Shown: positions 31,271 through 41,688 of the stretch, in pieces | Numbering within the stretch: position 1 is the first letter of the stretch | How the letters are laid out: each line of letters opens with the position of its first letter | NCBI RefSeq assembly: GCF_000243095.1 | Contig: NZ_AHJE01000007.1 | Coordinates: forward strand, 1 to 64,000 | Reading direction: 5' to 3' | Source: Cupriavidus basilensis OR16 | GTDB lineage: Bacteria; Pseudomonadota; Gammaproteobacteria; Burkholderiales; Burkholderiaceae | DNA: 64,000 nt | Notes under the pieces: model-generated | What the model was told of the DNA's origin: nothing | The model's input: the letters and a program-made list of their open reading frames with translations, nothing else | Databases searched by the model: none | Program-made: the position numbers and the translations under genes

Positions 31271-31663
31271 TCAACGCTTCGAGAATTGCTTCCGACGACG
31301 CGCCTTGTGGAAACCGACCTTCTTACGTTCCACTTCACGCGCATCGCGCGTGACGAAACCGGCCTTGGACAGCGACGGCTTCAGGGTGGCATCGTAGTCG
31401 ATCAGTGCACGGGTGATGCCGTGGCGCACTGCGCCGGCTTGACCCGTTTCACCGCCGCCAGTCACGTTGACCTTGATATCGAAGGTCTGTGCGTTGGCGG
31501 TCAGTTCGAGCGGCTGGCGCACGATCATCAGCGAGGTTTCGCGAGCGAAATACTCATTGATGGGCTTGCCATTGACGATGATATCGCCCTTGCCCGACTT
31601 GATGAAGACCCGTGCCACTGCGCTCTTGCGGCGGCCAGTACCGTAATTCCAATTTCCGATCAT
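31271..31663 (-). CDS. rpsI: 30S ribosomal protein S9
   Basis: Small-subunit protein whose C-terminal tail reaches the P-site tRNA. The 130-residue protein starts [20 protein letters not shown] and ends in the basic [16 protein letters not shown], with the universally conserved lysine-arginine terminus. It follows rplM by 11 bp and is followed by a strong terminator. Confidence 0.99.
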
Positions 31664-31674
31664 GGATGGCCCCC

Positions 31675-32103
31675 TTAGATTTCCAGCGCTTTAGGCTGCT
31701 GCGCTTCATGCGGATGCTCGGCTTCGGCGTAAACCTTCAGCTTCTTGATCATCGCATAGCCCAGCGGGCCCTTCGGCAACATGCCCTTCACAGCTTTTTC
31801 CAGGGCGCGGCCCGGGAAACGTTGCTGCATCTTACCGAACGTAGTTTCGTAAATGCCGCCCGGGTAACCCGAGTGACGATAGTACTTCTTGTCGGTTTCT
31901 TTGGTACCCGTGACACGCAGTTTGCCTGCGTTGACGATGATGATGTAATCACCCGTGTCGACGTGCGGAGTAAACTCCGGCTTGTGCTTGCCGCGCAGTC
32001 GGCGTGCCACTTCGCTGGCAACACGGCCGAGGACTTTGTCCGTCGCGTCAATCACGTACCAGTCGCGCTTAACCTCTGCAGGCTTTGCGGAAAAGGTCTT
32101 CAT
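31675..32103 (-). CDS. rplM: 50S ribosomal protein L13
   Basis: Early-assembling large-subunit protein. The 142-residue protein has [20 protein letters not shown] near the start and the conserved YRHSGYPGG segment. The start ATG at 32103 has a clear upstream AGGAAA. It is the first gene of the rplM-rpsI operon, with a leader of about 135 nt. Confidence 0.99.
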
Positions 32104-32401: not shown

Positions 32402-32435
32402 AATAAAAAAAACCCAAGCTATTGAGCTTGGGTTT
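32402..32435 (-). terminator. Intrinsic terminator of an orphan minus-strand transcript
   Basis: On the minus strand AAACCCAAGCT (32435-32425), loop CAAT, AGCTTGGGTTT (32420-32410) and a T run to 32404. It is far from any protein gene reading into it on this strand. Confidence 0.85.
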
Positions 32436-32573
32436 GAATCCACCAAAGGAGGAGGGTGGAGGAGACACCGGGAGATCGACGGGGCTGGGTCGCGGTGCGG
32501 ACCGGCGAATGTGGCTGAAGCCATCCGATTCGCTTTCGCACTCTGCGCCGTGTTGTGCGCCGTCGTTCAATGA
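32403..32573 (-). ncRNA. Candidate structured small RNA of about 170 nt
   Basis: A promoter (TTGCGC, 16 bp, TATAAT) and the terminator at 32402-32435 bracket this stretch and no credible protein is encoded in it. The RNA can form CGAAT-CGGA-TGGC-TTCA-GCCA-C-ATTCG, and TCCACC-loop-GGTGGA, whose loop reads CUCCUCCUUU, an exposed anti-Shine-Dalgarno-like sequence. The 5' segment TTTGAATC is complementary to GATTCAAA just before the terminator, which would close the molecule if transcription starts early enough. These are typical small regulatory RNA traits. No known family was recognised; 6S RNA was considered and not supported. Confidence 0.55.
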
Positions 32574-32578
32574 TTCAA

Positions 32579-32606
32579 ATTATACATGAGCGCCCTCCCA
32601 GCGCAA
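32579..32606 (-). promoter_or_regulatory. Sigma-70 promoter of the candidate small RNA
   Basis: Minus-strand TTGCGC (32606-32601) and a perfect TATAAT (32584-32579) with a 16-bp spacer. Predicted start near 32573. Confidence 0.6.
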
Positions 32607-32866
32607 GGAAATTTGCAGTGCGAAATGACATTCCGTATTGTAAAAAATCGTCAAAAGGCATTGGAGTGTTTTTTATACAATAAAATCAATCACTTAAGAG
32701 TTTATCTGGCTGTCACAGCGCTGTCATCTTAGAAGAAAGCTTCAGTTTCCGGGAAAAGTGTCGAGTTACGACGCTTCCAGGCAAGTGGCCTATACTCAAA
32801 AAGCAAGCTTTGAAATCGCGTGTTCATGATCGAATACGCACTCACTAGAACGCAGGATCGAACAAA
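32607..32866. other. AT-rich spacer before the OsmC-like gene
   Basis: The stretch is clearly richer in A and T than its surroundings (for example around 32640-32700). A plus-strand TATACT at 32791-32796 is a possible -10 for the OsmC-like gene. No reading frame of note was found. Confidence 0.5.
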
Positions 32867-33289
32867 ATGGAATGCAAAGTAACTTGGATGGGCGCCGACG
32901 GCATGAGCTTCGTGGCCGAGACGGGCAGTGGCCATATCGTGGCGATGGACGGTGCGCCCGAGGGCGGTGGCCACAACCTGGCCCCGCGTCCGATGGAAAT
33001 GGTCCTGCTGGGTACCGGCGGCTGCACTGCCTATGACGTGGTGCTGATCCTGAAGAAGGGCCGGCAGGATGTGCGCGGCTGCAGCGTCAAGCTGCAAGCG
33101 GAGCGCGCCAGCGAAGACCCGAAGGTGTTCACCAAGATCAACTTCCATTTCACGGTGACCGGACGGAACCTGAACCCAGGCTCGGTCGAACGGGCCATCC
33201 ACCTGTCGCACGACAAATATTGCTCGGCCTCGATCATGCTGGCCAAGACGGCGGAAATCACGCACACGGTGGAAATTGTAGAAGCGTAG
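32867..33289 (+). CDS. OsmC/Ohr-family thiol peroxidase-like protein
   Basis: Family of peroxide reductases that use two cysteines. The 140-residue protein has C53 in GTGGCTAYDVVLILKK and C119 in HLSHDKYCSASIML, the expected pair positions. It is closest to the YhfA-like subgroup by the opening MECKVTWMGADGMSFVAETG, whose physiological substrate is not established. It is flanked by an AT-rich promoter region and by rnpB on the other strand. Confidence 0.9.
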   Translation: MECKVTWMGADGMSFVAETGSGHIVAMDGAPEGGGHNLAPRPMEMVLLGTGGCTAYDVVLILKKGRQDVRGCSVKLQAERASEDPKVFTKINFHFTVTGRNLNPGSVERAIHLSHDKYCSASIMLAKTAEITHTVEIVEA

Positions 33290-33372
33290 GCGCTAGCGCC
33301 TGGCCGGCCCCGGGGGAGCCAGCTGTGGCGCCCCCATGGGGAATGGGTGCGCGCCACACGAAAGAATCAGAA

Positions 33373-33713
33373 GCAAAGCAGGCCGATAAGCCGGATTCTG
33401 TGCGCACCGGCTTCCTTGCGGTTGCCGGCACGTGACAATCATTCCTCTAGGCCGGCCGTTACCGACCGGCTCAAGCTCCCTACCCGCAGGCTCAGCGGGC
33501 CGCCTCAATGCCTGCCTATTTGGGATTGCTCCAGGTGGAGGTTACCGCGTTTCACCCTTCCCATCAGGCGAACCCGATGGCAAGACTCGTCTCTGTGGCC
33601 CTATTCCGCACGTTGCCGTGGATGGCTATTAGCCAACACCCTGCCCTGTGGAGTCCGGACTTTCCTCCCCTTGCACCACAAGGGTGCAAGCAGCGATTGT
33701 CTGGCCTGCTTTG
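33373..33713 (-). ncRNA. rnpB: RNase P catalytic RNA (class A)
   Basis: Ribozyme that cleaves tRNA 5' leaders. Read on the minus strand, the 5' GCAAAGCAGGCC and 3' GGCCTGCTTTGC ends pair (helix P1), followed by CAGACAATCGCTGC. The universally conserved GGGGAGGAAAGTCCGGAC-like block lies near 33660 and ACAGAATCCGGCTTAT near the 3' end. About 341 nt, a typical class A length for this group. Ends are set by the P1 pairing. Confidence 0.95.
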
Positions 33714-40788: not shown

Positions 40789-41688
40789 TCAGTCGAGTGC
40801 CTTGTCGTTCGGCGTCTTGAACAGTGCCTTCATGTCTTCCGACAGCGGGAAGTCCAGGTTCAGGCCCTTGGGCGGAACCGGCTGCTGGAACCACTTGGTG
40901 TACAGCGTGTTGATCGAGCCGTCCTTCATCATGCCGGTGATGACATGGTCGGACAGCTTCTTGAACGGTACATCATCCTTGCGGATCATGCAGCCGTACG
41001 ACTCACGCGATTGCGGCTTGCCAACCACGACCCAGTCGGCCGGGTTCTTGGCCTTGGCGCGTTCGCCGTACAACAGTGCGTCGTCCATCATGAAGGCGAC
41101 CGCGCGGCCCGATTCCAGCGTCAGGAACGACTGGCCGTGGTCCTTGGTGCTGATGATGTTCATGCCCAGCTTCTGGTCATCGTTCATCTTGCGCAGCAGG
41201 CGTTCCGAGGTGGTGCCGGCGGTGGTCACCACGTTCTTGCCCTTGAGGTCGGCCCAGTCCTTGATGCCGCCATCCTTCTTCACCATGATGCGGGTGCCGA
41301 TGATGAAGATGCTGGTGGTAAACGATGCCTGCTTCTGGCGCTCGAGGTTATTGGTGGTAGAACCGCACTCGATGTCGATGGTGCCGTTCTGCAGCAGGGT
41401 GATACGGTTCTGCGAGGTGATCGGAATTTCCTTGACCTGCAGGTTGGGCAGCTTCAGCTGGTCCTTGATGGCTTCCACGATCTTGACGTTGATGTCGTAG
41501 GAATAGCCGACCTGGCGCACACCGCCCAGGTTGTAGTTGAACGGAATCGACGACTCACGAACGCCAAGCGTAATCACACCGGTGTCTTTGATCTTCTGCA
41601 GCGTGCCCGTCAGTTGCTCGGCAGCTTGCGCGGTACCGCACAGCACGCCAGCCGCAATCATCAGGGAAGCCAACTTGGCAACATTCAT
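40789..41688 (-). CDS. gltI: Glutamate/aspartate ABC transporter periplasmic binding protein GltI
   Basis: Periplasmic receptor for glutamate and aspartate. From ATG 41688, with AAGGAGA upstream, it has 299 residues: signal peptide MNVAKLASLMIAAGVLCGTA with cleavage after AQA, then VITLGVRESSIPFNY, the ligand-binding CGSTTNNLERQKQASF block and a C-terminal LYTKWFQQPVPPKGLNL. It is the first gene of the transporter operon. An upstream in-frame extension is rejected. Confidence 0.95.
   Translation of the reverse strand: MNVAKLASLMIAAGVLCGTAQAAEQLTGTLQKIKDTGVITLGVRESSIPFNYNLGGVRQVGYSYDINVKIVEAIKDQLKLPNLQVKEIPITSQNRITLLQNGTIDIECGSTTNNLERQKQASFTTSIFIIGTRIMVKKDGGIKDWADLKGKNVVTTAGTTSERLLRKMNDDQKLGMNIISTKDHGQSFLTLESGRAVAFMMDDALLYGERAKAKNPADWVVVGKPQSRESYGCMIRKDDVPFKKLSDHVITGMMKDGSINTLYTKWFQQPVPPKGLNLDFPLSEDMKALFKTPNDKALD

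What the first reader, a model, noticed from the sequence alone, without database searches (positions are those of the whole stretch)
32402..32606. Orphan promoter-terminator pair with a CCUCCUCC-loop small RNA
A sigma-70 promoter and an intrinsic terminator on the minus strand bracket about 170 nt without a credible protein gene. The RNA folds into several hairpins, and one loop exposes CUCCUCCUUU, complementary to Shine-Dalgarno sequences. A segment after the 5' end can also pair with bases just before the terminator. Such C-rich loops are known in several stress-related small RNA families, but I could not assign this one.
Basis: partly seen in the sequence, partly recalled or inferred. Interest (0 to 1): 0.7.

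Follow-up and report, generated by a model that had tools for sequence, protein, structure and literature searches.

The report
Known anti-Shine-Dalgarno small RNA in Cupriavidus
The stretch encodes a copy of an already described family of small RNAs that block ribosome-binding sites on messenger RNAs, and comparing its relatives suggests that the family is switched by PhaR, the protein that senses stored bioplastic (PHB), although this particular copy has lost the recognisable switch.

Summary
The minus strand at 32405-32573 carries a promoter, about 169 nt without a supported gene, and an intrinsic terminator, with the loop CUCCUCCUUU. It is not an orphan. The 3' 64 nt match Rfam RF02278, 'Betaproteobacteria toxic small RNA' (69.9 bits, cut-off 50), the family of NcS03/05/27/62 in Burkholderia cenocepacia and kin of S17 of Bordetella pertussis. 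Of 119 loci with the near-exact core, 112 keep rplM, osmC and/or coq7 beside it; the other 7 are cut close upstream. Most likely a precursor is trimmed to a ~65-nt RNA that blocks ribosome-binding sites of transport and metabolism mRNAs.

New here: promoters of this family carry a PhaR-type operator (TGCRNYGCA) on the -35 box. It sits there in 55 of 73 loci from genomes with PhaR and 0 of 32 from genomes without (the two sets differ in clade). A paralogue in this genome has one of 14 perfect PhaR sites in 8.5 Mb. The window's own copy, like 24 of 30 Cupriavidus copies read at this locus, lacks the core. PhaR control would answer what represses these sRNAs. It is inferred from sequence only.

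The parts
32404..32467 (-). Mature-type sRNA, RF02278 (two hairpins, the second a terminator)
   Evidence: cmscan 69.9 bits, gathering 50, E 4.7e-12; alignment 1-64 of 64
32458..32467 (-). 5' CU-rich stretch UGUCUCCUCC (corresponds to 'Site 1' of S17; its last 3 bases enter the first stem)
   Evidence: sequence; role in S17 from PMC11722255 passages
32439..32460 (-). Hairpin UCCACC / GGUGGA with loop CUCCUCCUUU (32454-32445, corresponds to 'Site 2')
   Evidence: invariant in the 24 aligned Cupriavidus sequences
32404..32435 (-). Intrinsic terminator, 11 bp stem and T tail
   Evidence: two pairs changed on both sides, each in one of 24 sequences
32468..32573 (-). 5' leader of the presumed precursor (about 106 nt)
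   Evidence: promoter-to-mature distance, start inferred; conserved ends; compare the ~123-nt leader of S17L
32560..32565 (-). 5' arm CGACGG of the helix that closes the leader
   Evidence: paired in 95.8% of cells, helix 1
32477..32482 (-). 3' arm CCGUCG of the leader helix
32579..32584 (-). -10 element TATAAT (preceded directly by TG)
   Evidence: present in 30 of 30 genus loci
32601..32606 (-). -35 element TTGCGC; the place where relatives carry the PhaR-type palindrome, degenerate here (TTGCGCTGGGAGG)
32609..32625 (-). Conserved upstream element TTTCGCACTGCAAATTT of Cupriavidus promoters, regulator unknown
   Evidence: in several relatives it is the best, 4-mismatch likeness to the PhaR consensus
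31675..32103 (-). rplM (ribosomal protein L13), downstream neighbour, same strand
   Evidence: PF00572, E 4.1e-46
31271..31663 (-). rpsI (ribosomal protein S9)
   Evidence: PF00380, E 2e-48
32867..33289 (+). OsmC-like protein gene, divergent neighbour
   Evidence: PF02566, E 1.2e-16

Best explanation
This is the rplM-osmC-locus member of the RF02278 'toxic' or double-hairpin sRNA family in a Cupriavidus species. It sits at the position of B. pertussis S17 and very likely of B. cenocepacia NcS27 (BdhR1). RNA polymerase starts near 32573 and stops at the terminator near 32405 (inferred from sequence and conservation). The ~106-nt leader, held by a conserved CGACGG/CCGUCG helix, is probably cut off by RNase E next to the CU-rich stretch, leaving a ~64-66-nt RNA (inferred from S17L to S17S and from the processed NcS27). 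With Hfq, the 5' UGUCUCCUCC and the loop CUCCUCCUUU pair with Shine-Dalgarno sequences of many transport and metabolism mRNAs and lower their translation (shown for relatives, inferred here). At family level the promoter was probably built to be repressed by PhaR and released when PHB accumulates; this copy has lost the canonical operator while a paralogue in the same genome keeps it.
For: RF02278 at 69.9 bits over 64 of 64 positions. A match at E<=0.001 in 60 of 60 Cupriavidus genomes, over the cut-off in 58, and in 137 of 150 family genomes, over the cut-off in 133. In the 30 genus loci fetched (best hits, one per genome, 30 of 60 genomes) osmC is present in 30 and rplM in 29; the miss lies on a contig that ends there. 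Eighteen loci with osmC within 500 nt and coq7 near, 11 of them with rplM as well, link the two arrangements. Coq7 confirmed in a Bordetella locus. Literature: NcS27 processed, overexpression slows growth, antisense speeds it (PMC5688073, passages); S17L cut by RNase E to S17S, Hfq-dependent, S17S represses BP2158 (PMC11722255, abstract and passages).
Against: No transcript data exist here for this strain. A tagRNA-seq study of C. [quoted passage not shown] cenocepacia and B. pertussis (PMC7563307, passages). Helix support is mostly invariance, not covariation. [quoted passage not shown] coli, so the family name should not be taken as function.
Confidence: 0.88

Rival explanations
1. It is an attenuated 5' leader of the rplM-rpsI operon: transcription starts at the sRNA promoter and the terminator is read through to tune L13/S9.
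For: Same strand and within 500 nt upstream of rplM in 56 of 119 loci and present in 29 of 30 genus loci.
Against: 51 of 119 loci have no rplM within 500 nt although at least 800 nt of downstream sequence is held; 42 of these have coq7 in the locus instead (12 further loci without rplM are too short to tell). Paralogues away from rplM have the same RNA. NcS27's 3' end was mapped by RACE and S17L's size fits its terminator.
Confidence: 0.06
2. The precursor is also an mRNA for a small protein, as considered for S17L (32 residues).
For: S17L holds a 32-residue frame. A GTG frame of 40 aa runs through the window copy, and a GTG at the same leader position recurs in many congeners.
Against: That frame closes within the transcript in only 4 of 30 genus loci (L001, L026, L027, L028) and leader length varies from 63 to 120 nt. 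No formal coding test was run.
Confidence: 0.04
3. It is a true toxic RNA, for example half of a toxin-antitoxin pair.
For: Family name; growth inhibition in E. coli on a cloning vector, as cited in PMC4603805; NcS27 overexpression slows growth of its own host.
Against: It is kept at one syntenic place across families, and S17S overexpression did not impair exponential growth of E. coli. An antitoxin partner was not searched for.
Confidence: 0.05
4. The -35 palindrome in relatives is not a PhaR operator but the site of another regulator, or only a constrained promoter.
For: 14 of 49 named PhaR-bearing genomes lack it at the -35 of this locus; Cupriavidus carries other conserved upstream elements; the PhaR-bearing and PhaR-less sets differ mostly by clade; no binding data.
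Against: Match to the published PhaR/PhbF consensus; absent from the -35 in 32 of 32 loci from PhaR-less genomes; a same-genus contrast (g21: 4 of 4 with PhaR have it, the one readable PhaR-less genome has not); the perfect site in this genome's paralogue is one of 14 in 8.5 Mb, two others of which precede phasin genes.
Confidence: 0.25

Closest known systems
RF02278 Betaproteobacteria_toxic_sRNA; NcS03/NcS05/NcS27/NcS62 'double-hairpin RNAs' of B. cenocepacia
   Same: Sequence, two hairpins, CU-rich loop, terminator; NcS27 also has a leader that is cut off.
   Different: Leader ~106 nt here (inferred) against roughly 28 nt in NcS27 (92-nt transcript minus 64); expression and targets here unmeasured.
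S17 of Bordetella pertussis
   Same: Bordetella relatives carry the near-exact core (L045, L053, L128, L133); long precursor; osmC/coq7 neighbourhood.
   Different: rplM is not beside it in those loci; S17's promoter has -35 TTGCAT, while the window copy reads TTGCGC with a degenerate palindrome.
MmgR of Sinorhizobium meliloti (alpha-r8 family)
   Same: Hfq-dependent sRNA repressed by PhaR (AniA); its promoter is among those scored 'Efficient' in PhaR gel shifts (PMC12542648, passages); dyad between -35 and -10 (PMC8401924, passages). It works like what is proposed here.
   Different: Homology was not tested; its described role is PHB accumulation through phasins.
NmsRb (RF02877), anti-hemB (RF02837), ncS16 (RF02866)
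   Same: Weak matches; the first two show a similar CU-rich loop followed by a terminator (alignments; ncS16's was not shown).
   Different: All far below their cut-offs (31.4 of 52, 26.4 of 49.5 and 24.7 of 48 bits).

Membership tests
RF02278 Betaproteobacteria_toxic_sRNA | Covariance-model score at or above the curated cut-off | tested here: met
   69.9 bits against 50, full length
RF02278 Betaproteobacteria_toxic_sRNA | Double hairpin, first loop CU-rich and complementary to ribosome-binding sites, second hairpin a terminator | tested here: met
RF02278 Betaproteobacteria_toxic_sRNA | Host is a betaproteobacterium | tested here: met
RF02278 Betaproteobacteria_toxic_sRNA | Inhibits E. coli growth when cloned | not testable with these tools
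   no bench work
NcS27 / BdhR1 (positional orthologue) | Same chromosomal position as ncS27 (BCAL3348a/BCAL3349) | tested here: inconclusive
   J2315 was not fetched; Burkholderia loci L080, L114 and L132 have rplM downstream, and L080 and L132 osmC divergent
S17 (positional orthologue) | Conserved 5' core of S17S and coq7 neighbourhood | tested here: met
   Near-exact core with osmC and coq7 in four Bordetella loci; B. pertussis itself was not fetched
S17 (positional orthologue) | RNase E processing and Hfq dependence | not testable with these tools
   no RNA data
PhaR regulon (this copy) | Operator YTKNTGCRNYGCANMAR in the promoter (at most 3 mismatches, as in PMC12849132) | tested here: not met
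   Best site in 250 nt upstream in L001 has 4 mismatches and there is no TGCRNYGCA core
PhaR regulon (paralogue G000:C403:41333-41393) | Same operator | tested here: met
   0 mismatches, at -35 to -19 from the mature start
PhaR regulon (RF02278 family) | Direct PhaR binding and repression | not testable with these tools
   needs gel shift and a phaR deletion

The most novel reading that the evidence does not exclude
In betaproteobacteria that store PHB, the repressor PhaR directly controls the RF02278 anti-Shine-Dalgarno sRNAs through an operator laid over their -35 box. When PHB granules form and titrate PhaR away, the sRNAs are released together with phasins and shut down uptake and catabolism: a post-transcriptional arm of the carbon-storage response, parallel to PhaR-MmgR in alphaproteobacteria. 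PhaR would then be the unknown repressor postulated for S17. Lineages without PhaR keep the sRNA but lack the operator; in most Cupriavidus the rplM-locus copy escaped while the paralogue stayed under PhaR.
Probability: 0.7. Interest if true: 0.72.

Novelty: new member of a known kind. Interest (0 to 1): 0.5.

Why it matters
The sRNA itself is a known kind. The promoter comparison makes three stated open points testable: Sass et al. 2017 write that what regulates the accumulation of these sRNAs is unknown, Sim et al. 2024 postulate an unidentified repressor of the S17 promoter, and a 2021 review says the role of riboregulation in PHB synthesis in C. necator is undeciphered. A gel shift and one deletion strain would decide.

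Tried and rejected
Rejected: cis-attenuator of rplM, small-protein mRNA and toxin-antitoxin half (see rivals). Other Rfam families: below cut-off. A palindrome guess TTTCGYANTRCGAAA for the upstream element found 0 sites in this genome, so no regulator is named for it. The fifth RF02278 match in this genome (C416:103751, 34.5 bits) is below the cut-off and was not counted as a copy. Two of 20 fetched Cupriavidus paralogue regions (L265, L267) are another subtype and showed no such site by eye. Phasin start regions showed at most 9 nt complementary to the sRNA (L187, AAGGAGGAG): not evidence of targeting.

Rows dropped or doubled: 10 of 149 loci with under 250 nt upstream were dropped, and four contigs are present twice (L032/L035, L033/L106, L021/L047, L015/L145, by equal contig length); without the doubles the count is 93 of 135. 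In one search, L051 (23 nt upstream), L223 (another locus type; it has a core at -36), L247, L248 and L249 (weak matches; no readable start in L248 and L249) were left out. L247 (PhaR-less) has no core. Of the 30 PhaR-less loci, 9 (L305-L313) score below the RF02278 cut-off.

Full report
What is there. On the minus strand, a -35-like TTGCGC (32606-32601), a 16-bp spacer and TATAAT (32584-32579) are followed, after a start placed near 32573 and about 106 nt, by UGUCUCCUCCACCCUCCUCCUUUGGUGGAUUC (from 32467) and an 11-bp terminator with a T tail to 32404. Rfam names the last 64 nt RF02278, 'Betaproteobacteria toxic small RNA', at 69.9 bits (cut-off 50, E 4.7e-12).

Conservation. Genomes of the same genus share contig lengths with C. 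gilardii, C. pauculus and C. lacunae records, so the window is Cupriavidus. RF02278 has a match at E<=0.001 in 60 of 60 genus genomes, over the cut-off in 58, and in 137 of 150 family genomes, over the cut-off in 133. In 30 aligned genus loci (best hits of 30 of the 60 genomes) the mature part is nearly invariant outside the terminator loop. The leader is variable in the middle but mostly keeps ATTGAACGACGG at its start, GTGCG/CGCAC, and CCGTCG at its end. On 24 of these, a five-helix model pairs in 98.5% of 619 cells (34-46% when slid), with two pairs changed on both sides, both in the terminator. Most pairs vary little or not at all, so this supports conservation more than covariation. Leader length runs from 63 to 120 nt, and no reading frame closes at the same place in more than 4 of 30 loci.

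Locus. osmC is divergent in 30 of 30 genus loci and rplM downstream in 29 of 30; the miss is at a contig end. Of these, 112 have rplM within 500 nt downstream, osmC divergent within 1.5 kb, and/or coq7 near; the 7 others hold at most 391 nt upstream. In 32 loci, Bordetella and Achromobacter among them, osmC lies 0.5-1.5 kb away with coq7 near; Coq7 was confirmed by Pfam between osmC and the sRNA in one Bordetella locus. S17 of B. pertussis is described next to coq7 (PMC11722255). Eighteen loci with osmC within 500 nt and coq7 near, 11 of them with rplM too, bridge the two arrangements. So S17 and this RNA are positional orthologues. NcS27 lies between BCAL3348a and BCAL3349 (PMC4603805); J2315 was not fetched, but three Burkholderia loci have rplM downstream and two of them osmC divergent.

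What relatives do (papers read as passages; of PMC11722255 also the abstract). NcS27 is processed and is raised in biofilm, stationary phase, starvation and glucose medium; overexpression slows growth and antisense speeds it (PMC5688073). A review reports effects on phenylalanine and tyrosine catabolism and carbohydrate transport (PMC10987360). S17L (190 nt) is cut by RNase E to S17S (67 nt), S17 is Hfq-dependent, and S17S directly represses a sigma-54 activator; 70 affected genes have complementary sequences at or near their ribosome-binding sites (PMC11722255). These set the mechanism inferred for the window copy; nothing of it is shown here.

The promoter. Printing 34 promoters of the orthologues showed TCTTGCAWYGCACAA-like sequences over the -35 box in many genera. 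PMC12849132 gives a PhaR site deduced for R. eutropha as YTKNTGCRNYGCANMAR, and PMC3206438 gives TGNTGCN3GCAA for PhbF of Herbaspirillum. In 139 promoters (250 nt upstream of the mature start), the exact core TGCRNYGCA occurs in 94, against 3.8% of 2780 dinucleotide shuffles and 72 of 2679 other 250-nt windows in the same loci; without four doubled contigs, 93 of 135. In 87 of the 94, a -10-like hexamer (4 of 6 or better) lies 16-18 bp from the -35 so formed; the chance at random positions was 13%. The loci include near relatives and are not independent.

Paralogues. The 30 best family hits, with neither rplM nor osmC in their 3-kb loci, carry the core within 100 nt upstream in 26. In Cupriavidus the L002-type paralogue has a perfect consensus at -35 to -19 in L002 and in 18 of 18 of that type fetched; 2 of 20 stretches proved to be another subtype without it. 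In this genome the perfect consensus occurs at 14 places in 8.5 Mb (reversed-pattern control 2). One is upstream of this paralogue and two are upstream of phasin genes; several of the others lie inside long reading frames or were not resolved.

Natural experiment. PhaR (PF07879) is present in 50 of 50 named genomes tested that carry the sRNA core, in 29 of 33 smaller family genomes, and in 263 of 399 order genomes. RF02278 matches occur in 41 of 80 PhaR-less genomes examined, 21 over the cut-off (80 of 136 PhaR-less were searched). Thirty loci from ten families were fetched: 1 has the core, at -147, and none has it at the -35. Together, the core at -35 (spacer 15-19) is found in 55 of 73 PhaR-bearing and 0 of 32 PhaR-less loci, Fisher p 2e-14. 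The sets were collected differently and are mostly different clades, so the p value overstates. Within one genus (g21), four PhaR-bearing genomes have the operator and the PhaR-less G098 does not; a sixth genome, the incomplete PhaR-less G140, had no readable sRNA start.

Against it. The window copy fails: best site 4 mismatches, no core. At this locus 24 of 30 Cupriavidus loci lack the core, and the Ralstonia, Trinickia and Burkholderia loci read lack it at the -35, although PhaR is present in those tested; in all, 14 of 49 named PhaR-bearing genomes lack it there. Among smaller PhaR-bearing genomes 4 of 24 lack it at the -35. No binding or expression test was possible. A C. [quoted passage not shown] cenocepacia and B. 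pertussis (PMC7563307).

Precedent and novelty. In S. meliloti PhaR represses the sRNA MmgR and bound its promoter in gel shifts (PMC12542648; PMC8401924). No paper in the listings was seen to link PhaR with RF02278; several of those listings were cut (20 of 50, 20 of 25, 15 of 17, 12 of 22) and only the papers named here were opened. 'PhaR' and 'polyhydroxy' occur 0 times in PMC11722255, PMC5688073 and PMC10987360. Subscription papers, among them Sass 2019 on NcS27 and Ceizel Borella 2018 on mmgR, were not seen.

Verdict. A real, conserved, already catalogued sRNA; ordinary as a find, but its family's promoter gives a strong testable lead.

Noticed in passing
L002, G000:C403:41333-41393, site 41412-41428: RF02278 paralogue of this genome with a perfect PhaR consensus in its promoter, kept in 18 of 18 fetched congeners of that type.
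   Followed up: yes
window 32609-32640: Cupriavidus copies carry conserved TTTCGCANTGCAAATTT and, further up, TTTCG(N5)CGAAA-like palindromes upstream of the -35; regulator unknown, perhaps the successor of PhaR control.
   Followed up: partly
L005, G000:C416:103751-103822: Sub-threshold RF02278 match (34.5 bits) shortly downstream of the phasin gene at C416:103063: UGUCUCCUC followed later by a terminator-like hairpin, perhaps a 3'-UTR RNA.
   Followed up: no
L284-L313: In several PhaR-less families (f14, f33, f42) the sRNA promoters instead share an ATATTAGANAATNCTAATA-like element around the -10.
   Followed up: no
L102, L118, L146: Public genome bins labelled Klebsiella pneumoniae, Candidatus Methylopumilus and Bordetella parapertussis carry this Burkholderiales locus; the first two at least look like binning or naming errors.
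   Followed up: no
L120 (326 and 703): Pigmentiphaga sp. NML030171 has two near-exact copies of the sRNA core 377 bp apart.
   Followed up: no
window 33371-33712 (-): RNase P RNA gene (RF00010, 260 bits) next to osmC.
   Followed up: no
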